This document shows, piece after piece, positions 1,314 through 63,997 of a stretch of 64,000 nt of DNA. Each line of letters begins with the position of its first letter. Positions within the stretch are counted from its first letter, which is position 1. The position numbers and the translations under genes were made by a program. The notes beneath the pieces are model-generated. The model saw nothing but the letters and a program-made list of their open reading frames with translations. It did no database searches and had not been told where the DNA came from. The stretch is from the IMG/VR virus record IMGVR_UViG_3300025652_000055, positions 1 to 64,000 of that record, one strand, 5' to 3'. The DNA is from a virus.

Positions 1314-2885
1314 ATGAATTTTAATAATACTAATAGTATAGTAAAGGATCTGACCTTTAAAAAGAAGGCAAAGTCCAAAATAATGAAGGGTGTAGACAAG
1401 TTAGCGAAGGCCGTAGGCTCAACTCTTGGTGCATCTGGAAAATGTGTGATCTATGAAGATACCATGGGTCGGCCGGTGATAACAAAAGATGGTGTAACCG
1501 TTGCGGAAAGCGTAGTCTTAATGGACCCGGTCGAAAATATTGGCGCTACTTTAATAAAAGAAGCCGCCAGTAAAACAGTAGAAGAAGCAGGAGATGGTAC
1601 TACAACAGCTACCATCCTTGCTCATTCTATACTTAGTGGCTACAATGAGTATGAAGGATGGGAATCACTAAGAAATATTAAGAAAGGAATAGATTATTCA
1701 ACTGAAAAGGTATTAGAATACCTAGAAGAAATAAAAAAACCCGCAGACGACGATTTAATTAAGCATGTAGCTAAGATTTCCTGTAATAACGACAGTGAAT
1801 TAGGTAATTTAATTGCTGAGGCTTATGAAAAAGTGGGTAAAAACGGAGTAGTTTTGATGGAAGGCTCAGAAGATGAGAATACACACATCGAAATTGTTGA
1901 TGGAGTAGAGCTTCACGGCTGTAAAATAAAATCTCCGCACTTATTAACAGATAAAGACAACCATAAGTCAGTATTAGAAGATCCATACGTGTTAATCGTG
2001 GATTCTCCTGTAGAAAACATACGTAAAATACAGACAATATTGGAATATATAATAAAAGGTGGTAAATCACTGCTTATTATAGCAGAATTAGAACAACAAC
2101 CATTTGCTACATTGTTAATGAACAAGGTAAAAGGTAATATAAAGGTGAATATAGTAGATTTACCAGGTTTTGGTCCATCAAAAAGAGATACACTAGAGGA
2201 TATAGCGCTAATGACAGGTGCAAAAGTAATAAGTGAAGAACTTGGTGATGATATGGACATGATAGATCCAAAAGTATTAGGTAGAGCTAAAAAAGCTGTT
2301 ACAGATAAAAGATCTACAATACTAACCGTGGATAAAGATCCTAAGATTTTAAAAGACAGAATTAAATCTGTTGAAAAAAAGATAAAAGAAACTAAAGATA
2401 AGTATTGGAAAGGTCTTCACCAAAAAAGATTAGCCATGTTATCAGGTTTAGTTGGTATAATCAAAGTAGGTGCTTATTCTCAGGTTGAACGAAAAGAGAA
2501 GATGGATAGAGTTGAAGATGCTTTGTATGCTACTAAAGCCGCTATAGAAGAAGGTGTTGTGCCTGGTGGCGGTATTGCTTTGTTAAATGCTGCTAATATA
2601 GTTGAAAACCACGAAGGCGCTGGAGAGTTGATATTGTTAAACGCGATACAAGCTCCTTTTGAAAAAGTGTTAGAAAATGCTAATATGATGGAAAGAGTTT
2701 CCTGGGCTAATGAGTGGGAGGAAGGAGAAGGTATAGATGTTACATGTGGTTGTACAAAGAACATGGTTGAAGCTGGTATTGTGGATCCAGTATTAGTAAC
2801 TAAGTCAGCTTTAAAATACGCGGTAAGTGTTGCTAAAACAATAATGTCTGCCGATTGTGTAATTTCAAACGTCAGAGAACAATGA
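1314..2885 (+). CDS. groL: phage chaperonin GroEL (Hsp60)
   Basis: A 523-residue group I chaperonin, slightly shorter than the bacterial 548. Conserved ATP-site elements are visible: ITKDGVTVA (about 56-64), GDGTTTAT (93-100), RVEDAL (399-404, containing the catalytic Asp equivalent to E. coli D398) and GVVPGGG (414-420). The apical domain lies between about 190 and 375. The usual Gly-Gly-Met C-terminal tail is missing. It overlaps groES by four bases (ATGA), a coupled operon. Its likely role is folding phage virion proteins such as capsid or fibres in the host cytoplasm. Family assignment is secure; the client is inferred. Confidence 0.96.
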   Translation: MNFNNTNSIVKDLTFKKKAKSKIMKGVDKLAKAVGSTLGASGKCVIYEDTMGRPVITKDGVTVAESVVLMDPVENIGATLIKEAASKTVEEAGDGTTTATILAHSILSGYNEYEGWESLRNIKKGIDYSTEKVLEYLEEIKKPADDDLIKHVAKISCNNDSELGNLIAEAYEKVGKNGVVLMEGSEDENTHIEIVDGVELHGCKIKSPHLLTDKDNHKSVLEDPYVLIVDSPVENIRKIQTILEYIIKGGKSLLIIAELEQQPFATLLMNKVKGNIKVNIVDLPGFGPSKRDTLEDIALMTGAKVISEELGDDMDMIDPKVLGRAKKAVTDKRSTILTVDKDPKILKDRIKSVEKKIKETKDKYWKGLHQKRLAMLSGLVGIIKVGAYSQVERKEKMDRVEDALYATKAAIEEGVVPGGGIALLNAANIVENHEGAGELILLNAIQAPFEKVLENANMMERVSWANEWEEGEGIDVTCGCTKNMVEAGIVDPVLVTKSALKYAVSVAKTIMSADCVISNVREQ

Positions 2886-16045: not shown

Positions 16046-16274
16046 AGCTGTTGAAGAGCTTATAAAAGTAGCTGGTGAAAAAATAGTTGATTCAGGAGAC
16101 GATATATCTGCAGATAGATTAAAGAACGCTGCAGCTACTAAAAAGTTAGCTATATTTGATGCTTTCGAGATATTAAATAGAATACAAGACGAAGAGGATA
16201 TGCTTAACAATGTTGTAAAAGCAGAGGTTGAAGAAACATCATTTGGTGGTTTTGCAGAAAGAAGATCTAAGTAA
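15999..16274 (+). CDS. candidate small terminase subunit
   Basis: A 91-residue helical protein ending one base into terL. The start at 15999 (MNIKETKKNIIQAG) is preferred over 15936, which lies deep in the previous gene. Helices include HKAVEELIKVAGEKI and ATKKLAIFDAFEILNRI. Position directly before TerL and the small helical build fit a DNA-recognition subunit, but no HTH is obvious, so this is inferred from context. Confidence 0.45.
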   Translation: MNIKETKKNIIQAGHKAVEELIKVAGEKIVDSGDDISADRLKNAAATKKLAIFDAFEILNRIQDEEDMLNNVVKAEVEETSFGGFAERRSK

Positions 16275-18487
16275 TGTACAAGCAGAGTCTATACAAGGTT
16301 GTAGAACCTATTAAAATAAATACCATAAAAAGACTTAATAAGTCTAAAAAATGGAAGTACGGATATAACAAAGAACACGACATTGTTGTTATATCTAAAA
16401 CGGGTCAGATAGGTGAAATATATGAAATACAAAATTTTCAAATAGCATTACCAAAACACACAGATGTTTATAAATTTGATAGTGACAAATGGGAGGTAAA
16501 TGAATATCCCTCTGAGTTAAAAAGAATAAAAACTATATTTGATTGGAAAAATTATCCAGATGATTTTAAGAAAAAATATATAGATTACATAGAAAGTGAG
16601 TTTAAAAAAAGAGAAGAAGGTTTTTGGTATTACAATAAAGGCGTTCCTACTTATATTACTGGTACTCACTACATGTACTTGCAATGGTCCAAGATTGATG
16701 TTGGGCAACCAGACTTTAGAGAAGCAAATAGATTATTCTATATATTCTGGGAAGCTTGTAAAGCAGATACAAGATGCTACGGAATGTGTTATCTTAAAAA
16801 TAGACGTTCAGGATTCTCTTTTATGGCTTCAGGAGAAACAGTTAACCAAGCCACAATATCATCTGACGCTAGGTTCGGTATTTTATCTAAATCAGGACCA
16901 GATGCTAAAAAAATGTTTACCGATAAAGTCGTGCCAATATCAGTTAACTACCCTTTCTTCTTTAAACCAATACAAGACGGTATGGATCGTCCAAAAACAG
17001 AATTAGCATATAGAGTACCAGCTAGCAAGTTAACAAGAAGAAGTATTGTAAGTTCTGAAAAACCAGAAGAATTAGAGGGATTAGATACAACTATTGATTG
17101 GAAAAACACAGGTGACAATAGTTATGATGGTGAAAAGCTTAAGTTACTAGTACACGATGAGTCTGGTAAGTGGGAGAGACCTAACAACATATTAAACAAC
17201 TGGAGAGTTACAAAGACAACACTTAGACTAGGTTCTAGAATAATAGGTAAGTGTATGATGGGAAGTACGTCAAACGCTTTAGATAAAGGTGGAGACAATT
17301 TTAAGAAACTATATAAAAATTCAGATGTTACAAAAAGAAACCGCAATGGACAGACAAGCTCGGGACTATATAGTTTGTTCATACCTATGGAATGGAACTA
17401 CGAAGGATTCATTGATTCTTATGGGTTACCTGTCTTCGACACGCCTGACACAGAAAAAATTGGGCCTTTTGGCGAGACTATAGACACAGGTATATTAGAG
17501 CATTGGCAAAATGAAGTAGATGGATTAAAGAACGATGGTGATGCTTTAAATGAATTTTATAGGCAATTCCCAAGAACTGAAGAACACGCTTTCAGAGACG
17601 AAACAAAAAACAGTATATTTAATTTAGCAAAAATATACGAGCAAATAGATTTTAACGAGGATTTAAATAATACATCTCAAATTACAGTAGGTAGTTTTCA
17701 GTGGGTTAATGGTATAAAAGATTCTAAGGTAATGTTTTATCCAAATCCAGATGGAAGATTTAAAGTTAGCTGGGTTCCACCTATAAACAAACAGAATTAC
17801 AGTGTAATTAAAAACGGCATTAAATATCCAGGCAATGAGCACATGGGTGCTTTTGGTTGTGACAGTTATGACATATCAGGTACCGTTGATGGTAAAGGAT
17901 CTAATGGCGCGCTGCATGGGTTGACAAAGTTTAGTATGGAAGATTGTCCACCTAATCAATTTTTTTTAGAATATGTAGCTAGACCACAAACCGCTGAGAT
18001 ATTTTTTGAAGACGTTTTAATGGCGCTTATATTTTATGGGATGCCTTTACTTGCTGAAAATAATAAACCTCGTCTATTGTATTATTTAAGAAGACGTGGT
18101 TATAGAGGTTATTCTATGAATAGACCTGACAGAGTTTGGAACAAGCTTTCAACAGCTGAAAAAGAAGTAGGTGGTATACCTAACTCAAGTGAAGATATTA
18201 AGCAAGCACACGCTGCTGCTATTGAAATGTATATACAAGATCATGTTGGATTAAAGTCTGACAATACGTATGGAACATGCTATTTTAACGAAACATTACA
18301 AGACTGGGCAAAGTTTGACATTAATAATCGTACAAAGTTTGATGCGGCTATTAGTTCAGGATTAGCTATCATGGCTTGTAATAGACATTTATACAGAGCA
18401 AACCCCATTATGAAAAAAGAAAAATTAAACTTAAGCATAGCTAAATACGGACAATCAGGTATGCGTTCAAAACTAATAGAAAATTAA
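16274..18487 (+). CDS. terL: terminase large subunit (TerL)
   Basis: A 737-residue packaging motor. The ATPase region has a divergent Walker A-like loop, LKNRRSGFS (174-182), and a Walker B, KLLVHDE (290-296). The RNase H-like nuclease domain shows GAFGCDSYDIS (525-535) with the expected acidic residue. It drives DNA into procapsids through the portal encoded next. Its length and organisation resemble TerL of crAss-like and marine Bacteroidota podoviruses. Confidence 0.85.
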   Translation: MYKQSLYKVVEPIKINTIKRLNKSKKWKYGYNKEHDIVVISKTGQIGEIYEIQNFQIALPKHTDVYKFDSDKWEVNEYPSELKRIKTIFDWKNYPDDFKKKYIDYIESEFKKREEGFWYYNKGVPTYITGTHYMYLQWSKIDVGQPDFREANRLFYIFWEACKADTRCYGMCYLKNRRSGFSFMASGETVNQATISSDARFGILSKSGPDAKKMFTDKVVPISVNYPFFFKPIQDGMDRPKTELAYRVPASKLTRRSIVSSEKPEELEGLDTTIDWKNTGDNSYDGEKLKLLVHDESGKWERPNNILNNWRVTKTTLRLGSRIIGKCMMGSTSNALDKGGDNFKKLYKNSDVTKRNRNGQTSSGLYSLFIPMEWNYEGFIDSYGLPVFDTPDTEKIGPFGETIDTGILEHWQNEVDGLKNDGDALNEFYRQFPRTEEHAFRDETKNSIFNLAKIYEQIDFNEDLNNTSQITVGSFQWVNGIKDSKVMFYPNPDGRFKVSWVPPINKQNYSVIKNGIKYPGNEHMGAFGCDSYDISGTVDGKGSNGALHGLTKFSMEDCPPNQFFLEYVARPQTAEIFFEDVLMALIFYGMPLLAENNKPRLLYYLRRRGYRGYSMNRPDRVWNKLSTAEKEVGGIPNSSEDIKQAHAAAIEMYIQDHVGLKSDNTYGTCYFNETLQDWAKFDINNRTKFDAAISSGLAIMACNRHLYRANPIMKKEKLNLSIAKYGQSGMRSKLIEN

Positions 18488-58409: not shown

Positions 58410-59165
58410 TTACAGGTAGTCAATCACTTGCGATGGCTTTGTGTTTGCTATTAAGCTTTTAATACCATCTCTTTTTATCTGTGAAACTCTAACTATTGCC
58501 GTGTTAACTTTCATGTTTAGTTTCTTAGCTATTTGTATCGCGGAGTGTTTATCACAGTCTAAACCATAACTCATTCTAACAACCTCTCCTTGCTCATGAG
58601 TTAAGTGTTCTTTTATTAAACCCATTAAGTAAGCGTTCATTAGATGAATATTATAAGATGGAGTTTTATCTTCTATATTGTATATAGGATTATCATCGCT
58701 TCTTGTTGACTCATCAATACTAGAAAATATTGAGTTGAAAAACATTGCCACCATTTTATCATCTTCAGGGTTATTTCTTATTTCATTAAGCTTATGTTCT
58801 GGTATACGTATATCACCCCGTTTCATATCAATTGCTCTACGTATTTGACCTTTTATTCTTTTTGATAGAAAAGATTTTAATGTTTTTTCTACGTCAGGTG
58901 ATTCGTCTATCATTTGCCAGTCTATTTTATCTACTGCTAAAATCAAACCTATACTACCTTCTTGTAATAAGTCATTTATACTTAGAACACCTGAAGCCTG
59001 CTGTGATGTAGCAAACTTTCTAGCTAAGCTTTCTACTAAAGGAAGAAATTTTATTATAAGTTCTTTTCTTGTATACTCGTCATAAAACTTACCTTCAAGA
59101 TTTGCTATAGATGTCTTAACATCTTCTTTGTATCTTATGTAGTTTTGTATGTTATATTTTTTCAT
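58410..59165 (-). CDS. sigma-70 family RNA polymerase sigma factor
   Basis: A 251-residue sigma factor. Region 2 is clear (LPLVESLARKFA, then INDLLQEGSIGLILAVDKID). KRIKGQIRRAIDMKRGDIRI fits region 2.4/3. The C-terminal HTH of region 4 reads HSAIQIAKKLNMKVNTAIVR. It would direct host RNA polymerase to phage promoters, perhaps the repeated element described at 63548-63582 or the late block. A 71-base AT-rich gap follows it before erf. Confidence 0.85.
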   Translation of the reverse strand: MKKYNIQNYIRYKEDVKTSIANLEGKFYDEYTRKELIIKFLPLVESLARKFATSQQASGVLSINDLLQEGSIGLILAVDKIDWQMIDESPDVEKTLKSFLSKRIKGQIRRAIDMKRGDIRIPEHKLNEIRNNPEDDKMVAMFFNSIFSSIDESTRSDDNPIYNIEDKTPSYNIHLMNAYLMGLIKEHLTHEQGEVVRMSYGLDCDKHSAIQIAKKLNMKVNTAIVRVSQIKRDGIKSLIANTKPSQVIDYL

Positions 59166-61897: not shown

Positions 61898-61932
61898 TTA
61901 TATTATCGGTTCTCGTTCGTATTATTTTTGTA
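61898..61932 (-). promoter_or_regulatory. promoter-like element, copy B
   Basis: Matches copy A (63548-63582) at 30 of 35 positions: TACAAA, then TAATACGAA, then AACCGATAATATAA. It begins inside the last codons of the upstream gene and ends 2 bases before the ATG at 61895. Conservation of the same block upstream of two unrelated genes argues for a regulatory role. Confidence 0.6.
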
Positions 61933-62374: not shown

Positions 62375-62393
62375 AATTATATTTTAAAATTAG

Positions 62394-62466
62394 GTGCGCA
62401 GGGAGGACTCGAACCTCCGACCTCTAGCTTATGAGGCTAGCGAGCTGCCTGCTGCTCTACCGCGCA
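62394..62466 (-). tRNA. tRNA-Met(CAU), initiator-like
   Basis: A 73-nt tRNA on the minus strand. The acceptor pairs TGCGCGG with CTGCGCA (one G-U). The D-arm is GAGC/GCTC, the anticodon loop CTCATAA carries CAU, and the T-arm is GGAGG-TTCGAGT-CCTCC. CCA is not encoded. The D-stem has A11:U24 and the first pair is a weak T1-A72, both initiator-like, but the three G-C pairs of the initiator anticodon stem are absent. It could be formylmethionine-type, elongator, or Ile-type if lysidine-modified. Confidence 0.92.
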
Positions 62467-63547: not shown

Positions 63548-63582
63548 TTATATTATCGGTTTTTATTCGTATTAAATTTGTA
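63548..63582 (-). promoter_or_regulatory. promoter-like element, copy A
   Basis: This element contains TACAAA, then TAATACGAA, then AACCGATAATATAA. It begins five bases after the last base of the tmRNA-like RNA (63587) and ends nine bases before the ATG at 63539. Copies B and C occur at 61898-61932 and 18-55. TAATACGA is identical to the first eight bases of the T7 promoter; the rest does not match. Confidence 0.6.
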
Positions 63583-63586
63583 TTAG

Positions 63587-63664
63587 TGGAGGTGGACAGA
63601 ATCGAACTGTCTTCCGTAATAGTTCCATATAGGCTTTCTATCACGTCAAAACCAGGTCACCCCC
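63587..63664 (-). ncRNA. minimal tmRNA-like RNA (tRNA-like domain, no message domain)
   Basis: A 78-nt RNA with the architecture of a tmRNA tRNA-like domain. Acceptor GGGGGTG (63664-63658) pairs with CACCTCC (63594-63588). It has an unpaired D-region ACCTGGTTTTGAC, a P2-like 7-bp helix GTGATAG/CTATTAC (63644-63638 with 63622-63616) closed by a 15-base loop, and a T-arm GACAG-TTCGATT-CTGTC. The start (GGGG.TGACC.GG.TTTGAC) resembles Bacteroidota tmRNA. The tag reading frame and pseudoknots are missing, and CCA is not encoded. Confidence 0.6.
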
Positions 63665-63668
63665 ATTA

Positions 63669-63894
63669 CGTAGTTATCTCCGTTTCCATGAGTTCATAAC
63701 GATCCCTCACCACTTCAACGATCGGACTTCCACCGTGCATGCAGTTAATTACTCTGCAACCCGTGATACTACGACTTATAAAATTAAAGGATCTTCGTCA
63801 GCTTAACCACGTATCTCCTCGCTGAGTTCCTACAGCCATACTGAGCCCTTCACATTTATAAGATTTTAGTAACTAGCGAAGGAATCGAACCTTC
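63669..63894 (-). ncRNA. two-domain structured RNA with an extra T-arm, unknown class
   Basis: On the minus strand, a tRNA-type T-arm (GAAGG-TTCGATT-CCTTC, 63894-63878) and acceptor-like GCTAGTT are followed by two closed domains. Domain 1 is bounded by CTTATAAA/TTTATAAG (63862-63855 with 63782-63775). Domain 2 is bounded by CGTAGT/ACTACG (63773-63768 with 63674-63669), each with internal helices. The domains abut with one base between. No open reading frame fits. It is G+C-rich relative to its surroundings. Not a class I recognise. Confidence 0.5.
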
Positions 63895-63901
63895 ATACTC
63901 G

Positions 63902-63997
63902 TCAGTAGTAATGAACTCTGTTTAACTTAATAACACCTGTTACATCCATACCTAGTTTACCGGCTATTGTGTGATCACTAATCGTATCTTTCGCCAT
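63902..63997 (-). CDS. end of, or tiny, HTH-like protein (may extend past the window)
   Basis: A 31-residue frame starting at ATG 63997 and ending TGA at 63902; the frame is open to base 64000, so the gene may begin outside. It reads DHTIAGKLGMDVTGVIKLNR, which looks like the recognition helix region of an HTH. It could instead be chance coding over a tRNA-like 5' half, since AACTAG here can pair with CTAGTT at 63876-63871. Confidence 0.3.
   Translation of the reverse strand: MAKDTISDHTIAGKLGMDVTGVIKLNRVHYY

What the first reader, a model, noticed from the sequence alone, without database searches (positions are those of the whole stretch)
63587..63664. Phage RNA resembling a tmRNA stripped to its tRNA-like domain
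Seen: a 7-bp acceptor with one G-U pair, an unpaired D-region with GGTTTTGAC, a 7-bp P2-like helix closed by 15 bases, and a perfect T-arm, all in 78 nt. Known: bacterial tmRNAs start GGGGxTGA...GGxTTxGAC and place the tag frame and pseudoknots beyond P2. Here that part is absent. Inference: a phage decoy or regulator of trans-translation (it could bind SmpB, alanyl-tRNA synthetase or EF-Tu without tagging), or a decayed gene. The retained covariation-type pairs argue against decay.
Basis: partly seen in the sequence, partly recalled or inferred. Interest (0 to 1): 0.85.

Follow-up and report, generated by a model that had tools for sequence, protein, structure and literature searches.

The report
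Phage mini-tmRNA lacking tag domain
A marine phage carries an 81-nucleotide RNA that is a bacterial ribosome-rescue RNA (tmRNA) cut down to its tRNA-like part, and it belongs to a large, previously overlooked family in many phages that has kept its alanine-charging signal but lost the protein-tagging part, so it probably interferes with or redirects the host's rescue of stalled ribosomes.

Summary
On the minus strand, 63664..63584 is a complete tmRNA tRNA-like domain in 81 nt, without tag frame or pseudoknots (Rfam tmRNA 66.1 bits, E 9e-25). It is not decayed and not unique. Pattern scans of IMG/VR and BLAST of cultured phages gave 106 distinct mini-tmRNAs in 153 held loci, from marine contigs to Streptomyces phages (often inside tRNA arrays) and Pontimonas phage phiPsal1. 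Only one match of the GGGG-type pattern was found in 84,980 prokaryote genomes. In 55 members under 80% identical, five inner P2 pairs are 93-100% paired against at most 65% in shuffles. With the acceptor not constrained, G3:U70 and A73 (the alanine-charging signal) are invariant (64/64; 81/81 by another detector) while acceptor pairs 4-6 covary. Most members share an internal AAAGCC-loop-GGA hairpin. No SmpB gene lies in 40 carrier records. The kind is known from one phage: DS6A is 'TLD only', and a similar RNA inhibits tmRNA in E. coli (PMC4131195, PMC11915505). New here: the family's size and covariation, the internal hairpin, and selection for alanine charging. Best mechanism (inferred): Ala-charged RNA with host SmpB and EF-Tu occupies stalled ribosomes in place of host tmRNA, so nascent chains escape the degradation tag.

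The parts
63584..63664 (-). mini-tmRNA (TLD-only tmRNA), 81 nt including the ACTA tail
   Evidence: RF00023 66.1 bits E 9e-25; conserved family
63658..63664 (-). acceptor stem 5' strand GGGGGTG; G3 at 63662
   Evidence: 7/7 pairs with 63588-63594; positions 4-6 covary in the family
63645..63657 (-). unpaired D-region ACCTGGTTTTGAC (tmRNA signature GGnTTnGAC); its last C opens P2
   Evidence: RF00023 alignment; near-invariant in A1
63638..63645 (-). P2 helix 5' strand CGTGATAG
   Evidence: pairs P2_2 to P2_6 93-100% paired in 55 nonredundant members, shuffled maximum at most 0.65
63623..63637 (-). P2 loop AAAGCCTATATGGAA with internal CC/GG hairpin (family motif AAAGCC-loop-GGA)
   Evidence: AAAGCC in 34 of 55 nonredundant members; alignments A1, A2
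63615..63622 (-). P2 helix 3' strand CTATTACG
63612..63614 (-). linker GAA (with the preceding G, the GGAC/GGAA of tmRNA)
63595..63611 (-). T-arm GACAG-TTCGATT-CTGTC
   Evidence: T stem covaries; GACAG/CTGTC becomes GAGAG/CTCTC in L103
63588..63594 (-). acceptor stem 3' strand CACCTCC; U70 equivalent at 63590
   Evidence: G3:U70 64/64 with acceptor unconstrained
63584..63587 (-). discriminator A73 (63587) plus CTA; CCA is not encoded
   Evidence: A73 81/81, 64/64
63551..63571 (-). promoter-like repeat TACGAATAAAAACCGATAATA directly downstream, before the next gene
   Evidence: repeated at 67035, 66082, 64371, 63571, 61921 on the minus strand

Best explanation
It is a phage-encoded mini-tmRNA: the complete tRNA-like domain of tmRNA, with P2 capped by a small hairpin and with no tag frame and no pseudoknots. 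Host RNase P, 3' trimming and CCA addition would mature it. Host AlaRS would charge it through G3:U70 and A73. Host SmpB and EF-Tu would deliver it to ribosomes stalled at broken mRNA ends, where it competes with host tmRNA and accepts the nascent chain without offering a resume codon, so chains do not receive the ssrA degradation tag. Shown here: structure, family, covariation, invariance of the alanine signal, absence of a tag frame and of phage SmpB. Inferred: charging, SmpB binding, ribosome entry and the benefit to the phage.
For: RF00023 E 9e-25 with the whole interior missing. 106 distinct relatives in 153 held loci. P2, T and acceptor pairs covary. G3:U70 and A73 invariant when not selected for (81/81; 64/64). 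No stop in the AAA|GCC frame in 62 of 76. No SmpB gene in 40 carrier records, control positive in 10 of 14 genomes. Lies among tRNA genes in Streptomyces phages. Literature: phage DS6A is TLD-only and such an RNA strongly inhibits tmRNA (PMC4131195, PMC11915505, citing Mao 2009); TLD plus SmpB mimics a whole tRNA and makes polyalanine in vitro without template mRNA (PMC3929946, citing Shimizu and Ueda 2006).
Against: I found no expression, charging or binding data for any member found here. Streptomyces phages Tomas and Riptide carry both a full tmRNA with a degradation-type tag and a mini-tmRNA, so blocking all tagging cannot be the whole story. Inhibition in E. coli was reported whether or not the RNA was chargeable (PMC4131195), which leaves the strict alanine signal unexplained by competition for SmpB alone. 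The role of the internal AAAGCC hairpin is unknown.
Confidence: 0.55

Rival explanations
1. Productive tagless rescue: the charged RNA frees stalled ribosomes itself, adding one or a few untemplated alanines before release by another factor, so phage proteins are released undegraded or Ala-tailed.
For: Alanine identity is strictly kept; TLD-SmpB supports polyalanine synthesis without mRNA in vitro (PMC3929946); organelle tmRNAs without a tag frame persist alongside SmpB (PMC11915505); coexistence with a full tmRNA in Tomas and Riptide.
Against: No release step is known without a resume codon; expression of a similar RNA inhibits tmRNA in E. coli (PMC4131195).
Confidence: 0.2
2. Passive decoy that only titrates SmpB (or AlaRS or EF-Tu) and never engages ribosomes.
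For: Non-chargeable versions also inhibit tmRNA (PMC4131195); no phage SmpB.
Against: G3:U70 and A73 are invariant while acceptor pairs 4-6 drift freely, which is not needed for titrating SmpB.
Confidence: 0.15
3. Alanine donor or priming RNA for something other than ribosome rescue (for example an aminoacyl-RNA-using phage enzyme).
For: Alanine signal kept; no tag frame.
Against: The tmRNA-specific D-region and GGAC linker are kept, which points to SmpB; no common partner gene was seen in the varied contexts.
Confidence: 0.05
4. Decayed tmRNA, attachment-site remnant or assembly artefact.
For: Prophages often carry tmRNA 3' ends (general knowledge); no tool result supports it.
Against: Both halves of the TLD are present in order; compensatory changes throughout; the same 66-83 nt design in independent samples and cultured phages.
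Confidence: 0.02

Closest known systems
Mycobacterium phage DS6A tmRNA (TLD only)
   Same: [quoted passage not shown] a similar molecule inhibits tmRNA in E. coli (PMC4131195, PMC11915505).
   Different: Reported as a single case; its record is not held here, so sequence relation, internal AAAGCC hairpin and covariation could not be compared.
Bacterial tmRNA (ssrA, RF00023)
   Same: Acceptor with G3:U70 and A73, GGnTTnGAC D-region, P2, GGAC linker, T-arm.
   Different: No mRNA-like domain, no pseudoknots, 66-83 nt instead of a few hundred.
Mitochondrial (RF02544, jakobid) and Mallomonadaceae plastid tmRNAs without tag frame
   Same: TLD retained, tag frame lost (PMC11915505).
   Different: Mitochondrial forms are usually permuted; plastid forms are about 65 bp; organelle, not phage.
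Synthetic TLD fragments used in SmpB crystal structures (e.g. 2CZJ, PMC3929946)
   Same: TLD closed over a shortened P2; binds SmpB.
   Different: Laboratory constructs; these are natural genes with a conserved capping hairpin.
Full or permuted phage tmRNAs (Melnitz, mycobacteriophage Bxz1 group, Streptomyces phage Tomas)
   Same: Phage-borne, same TLD.
   Different: They encode a tag (Tomas DNSNVAFALAA); this RNA does not.

Membership tests
tmRNA (ssrA) | tRNA-like domain: 7-bp acceptor, GGnTTnGAC D-region without D stem, P2, T-arm | tested here: met
   RF00023 66.1 bits, E 9e-25
tmRNA (ssrA) | alanine identity G3:U70 with A73 | tested here: met
   64/64 with acceptor unconstrained, 81/81
tmRNA (ssrA) | tag reading frame with resume codon and stop | tested here: not met
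   window AAA|GCC frame has no stop to the 3' end (sequence); 62 of 76 relatives likewise
tmRNA (ssrA) | pseudoknots PK1-PK4 | tested here: not met
   the model's 304-position interior is replaced by 11 nt
tmRNA (ssrA) | SmpB binding and trans-translation activity | not testable with these tools
   needs biochemistry
Phage TLD-only tmRNA (DS6A type) | phage gene consisting of little more than the TLD, halves in standard order | tested here: met
Phage TLD-only tmRNA (DS6A type) | sequence homology to DS6A itself | not tested
   DS6A was not found under the two accessions tried
Phage TLD-only tmRNA (DS6A type) | inhibits endogenous tmRNA | not testable with these tools
   literature only (PMC4131195)
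tRNA | D stem and 7-nt anticodon loop on a 5-bp stem | tested here: not met
   8-bp P2 with 15-nt loop, no D stem; ARAGORN negative
Permuted (two-piece) tmRNA | 3' TLD half encoded upstream of the 5' half | tested here: not met
   standard order in one 81-nt unit

The most novel reading that the evidence does not exclude
A widespread class of phage RNAs performs template-free, alanine-adding, tagless handling of stalled ribosomes through host SmpB: a phage counterpart of Ala-tailing that replaces ssrA tagging during infection.
Probability: 0.2. Interest if true: 0.9.

Novelty: new variant of a known kind. Interest (0 to 1): 0.7.

Why it matters
The 2025 tmRNA database counts 9 standard-form tmRNAs without a tag frame among 97,179 sequences, DS6A being the phage case it names (PMC11915505). 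Here over 100 distinct sequences share one design, including several in cultured Streptomyces phages with laboratory hosts, where most are unannotated and one (GiJojo gene 44) overlaps an annotated protein gene. That makes a long-noted curiosity testable: whether phages routinely manipulate trans-translation with an RNA, and whether alanine charging is needed. It would add ribosome rescue to the processes that phages target.

Tried and rejected
Decay, attachment-site remnant or chance: rejected by covariation and by the near absence from prokaryote genomes. Ordinary tRNA: no anticodon arm, ARAGORN negative. Intron-split or permuted tmRNA: relatives are contiguous, and no second tmRNA piece lies in the record. 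Hidden short tag (GCC as resume codon): 62 of 76 have no stop in that frame. A phage SmpB partner: none in 40 records. Direct BLAST of the window region against cultured phages found nothing, and the 82-nt L151 relative gave only partial matches, none over 80% of the query; other members found Streptomyces and Pontimonas phages. DS6A could not be fetched and Mao 2009 is not held. A first covariance-model build failed on alignment length; pair statistics were then computed directly and no model was built. The only prokaryote-genome hit, L207, is a MAG contig labelled archaeon; one HNH endonuclease and one phage family of unknown function were found there, so a phage origin is not shown.

Full report
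What is there. On the minus strand of the window, 63664..63584, lies an 81-nt sequence that folds as acceptor (7 bp), unpaired D-region ACCTGGTTTTGAC, P2 (8 bp), a 15-nt loop with a small CC/GG hairpin, linker GAA, T-arm (5 bp, 7-nt loop) and the tail ACTA. Rfam's tmRNA model matches end to end with its interior deleted, 66.1 bits, E 9e-25. It is the only tmRNA match in the 67,271-bp viral record. ARAGORN does not report it. The single G-U pair in the acceptor is G3:U70, the alanine identity pair of tmRNA and tRNA-Ala (established knowledge).

The phage. The large terminase (16274-18487) is related to Flavobacterium, Cellulophaga, Tenacibaculum and Maribacter phages (at most 62.5% identical). 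The phage also has groEL, sigma factor, primase/helicase, DNA ligase and ribonucleotide reductase genes. The mini-tmRNA sits in a leftward region of small ORFs and is followed directly by a promoter-like repeat (TACG, a spacer, then CCGATAATA or close to it) that recurs before other leftward genes.

The family. A pattern for a short TLD gave 14 and 61 viral contigs, but 0 and 1 prokaryote contigs among 84,980 species; the pattern required a GGGG start, so GGGC/GGGT forms in prophages were not tested there. Parsing all held loci gave 106 distinct mini-tmRNAs in 153 loci (the window's own copies included), mostly 77-83 nt with a few of 66-74 nt. BLAST placed members in cultured phages: Streptomyces phages BRock, Alone3, LuckySocke, GiJojo, pSt2308, Shaeky, and diverged forms in Tomas and Riptide; and Pontimonas phage phiPsal1. 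In the Streptomyces phages the RNA lies among tRNA genes and is unannotated, or in GiJojo overlaps a hypothetical protein. In phiPsal1 it lies just before the major capsid gene.

Conservation. In alignment A1 six P2 pairs have 18 to 30 of 44 sequences with both sides changed. In 55 members under 80% identical, P2 pairs 2-6 are 93-100% paired, against shuffled means of 0.40-0.44 and maxima of 0.58-0.65; T and acceptor stems are 100% paired. The detector behind that set required at least 6 of 7 P2 pairs, 4 of 5 T pairs and a fully paired GGG/TCC acceptor, so those percentages are partly by selection; the unselected alignment A1, found by a pattern that does not look at P2 pairing, shows the same P2 covariation. 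When the acceptor was left free, 64 of 64 had G3:U70 and A73, while pairs 4-69, 5-68 and 6-67 took several pair types; many of those 64 were first fetched with patterns that fix GGGG at the 5' end, but not the 3' strand or A73. The set fetched by the internal motif alone, with no demand on either acceptor strand beyond 6 of 7 pairs in parsing, gave 81 of 81. 34 of 55 carry AAAGCC in the P2 loop, usually followed by a short hairpin ending in GG. No tag frame is evident. None of 40 carrier records has an SmpB gene. Only Tomas and Riptide also have a full tmRNA, with tags ending in ALAA.

Mechanism. From the literature, SmpB supplies the missing lower half of the tRNA shape, tmRNA must be alanylated to be carried by EF-Tu, and a TLD fragment with SmpB makes polyalanine in vitro without mRNA (PMC3929946). 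A TLD-only RNA strongly inhibits tmRNA, chargeable or not (PMC4131195). The strict alanine signal argues that the phage RNAs act while charged, that is, on the ribosome. I therefore favour a charged competitor that occupies stalled ribosomes and keeps chains from being tagged; productive tagless rescue with added alanines is the main rival. All steps after the sequence evidence are inference.

Comparison and novelty. The kind is known: DS6A is listed as TLD only (PMC4131195) and the 2025 database has 9 standard tmRNAs without a tag frame (PMC11915505). What appears undescribed in the papers I could search is a large covarying phage family with a conserved P2 hairpin and fixed alanine identity. 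Whether DS6A shares the hairpin could not be checked.

Noticed in passing
window 63867-63957, minus strand; relatives L151, L182, L235, L245, L247, L255, L278, L295: A second tRNA-like element upstream of the mini-tmRNA: T-arm GAAGGTTCGATTCCTTC with a 6-bp acceptor AACTAG/CTAGTT and no recognisable D-arm or anticodon arm; the T stem varies in relatives (GAGGG/CCCTC, TGAGG/CCTCA). Rfam and ARAGORN are silent; the window copy does not fold better than shuffles.
   Followed up: partly
window 63665-63790, minus strand; relatives L103, L171, L178, L206: Directly before the mini-tmRNA lies a variable element closed by a 6-8 bp stem that differs completely between relatives (CGTAGT..ACTACG; TGTGCAG..CTGCACA; ATACCACC..GGTGGTAT; CTACAAG..CTTGTAG). 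Some versions fold well (z -3.9, -3.5), the window's does not (z -0.28).
   Followed up: partly
L002 4568-4624, minus strand (record about 66567-66623, outside the window): A 57-nt tRNA-like hairpin set: 7-bp acceptor AGACATA/TATGTCT, a short stem, a perfect T-arm and ACTA, with no D-arm.
   Followed up: partly
window 62393-62466, minus strand: tRNA-Met (CAT) with initiator-like features; in relative L160 a tRNA-Met follows the mini-tmRNA directly.
   Followed up: no
window 63551-63571 and 61901-61921, minus strand; record 64371, 66082, 67035: Repeated promoter-like sequence (AATACG, spacer, CCGATAATA) before leftward genes; the phage encodes a sigma-factor homologue at 58410-59165.
   Followed up: no
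window 1314-2885, plus strand: Phage groEL chaperonin homologue, 523 aa, phrog_5725 E 8e-131.
   Followed up: no
Streptomyces phages Tomas (L209, L311) and Riptide (L308, L312): These phages carry both a full tmRNA (tags DNSNVAFALAA and ANSKFAFALAA) and a diverged mini-tmRNA with acceptor GGGTTTG/CAAATCC.
   Followed up: partly
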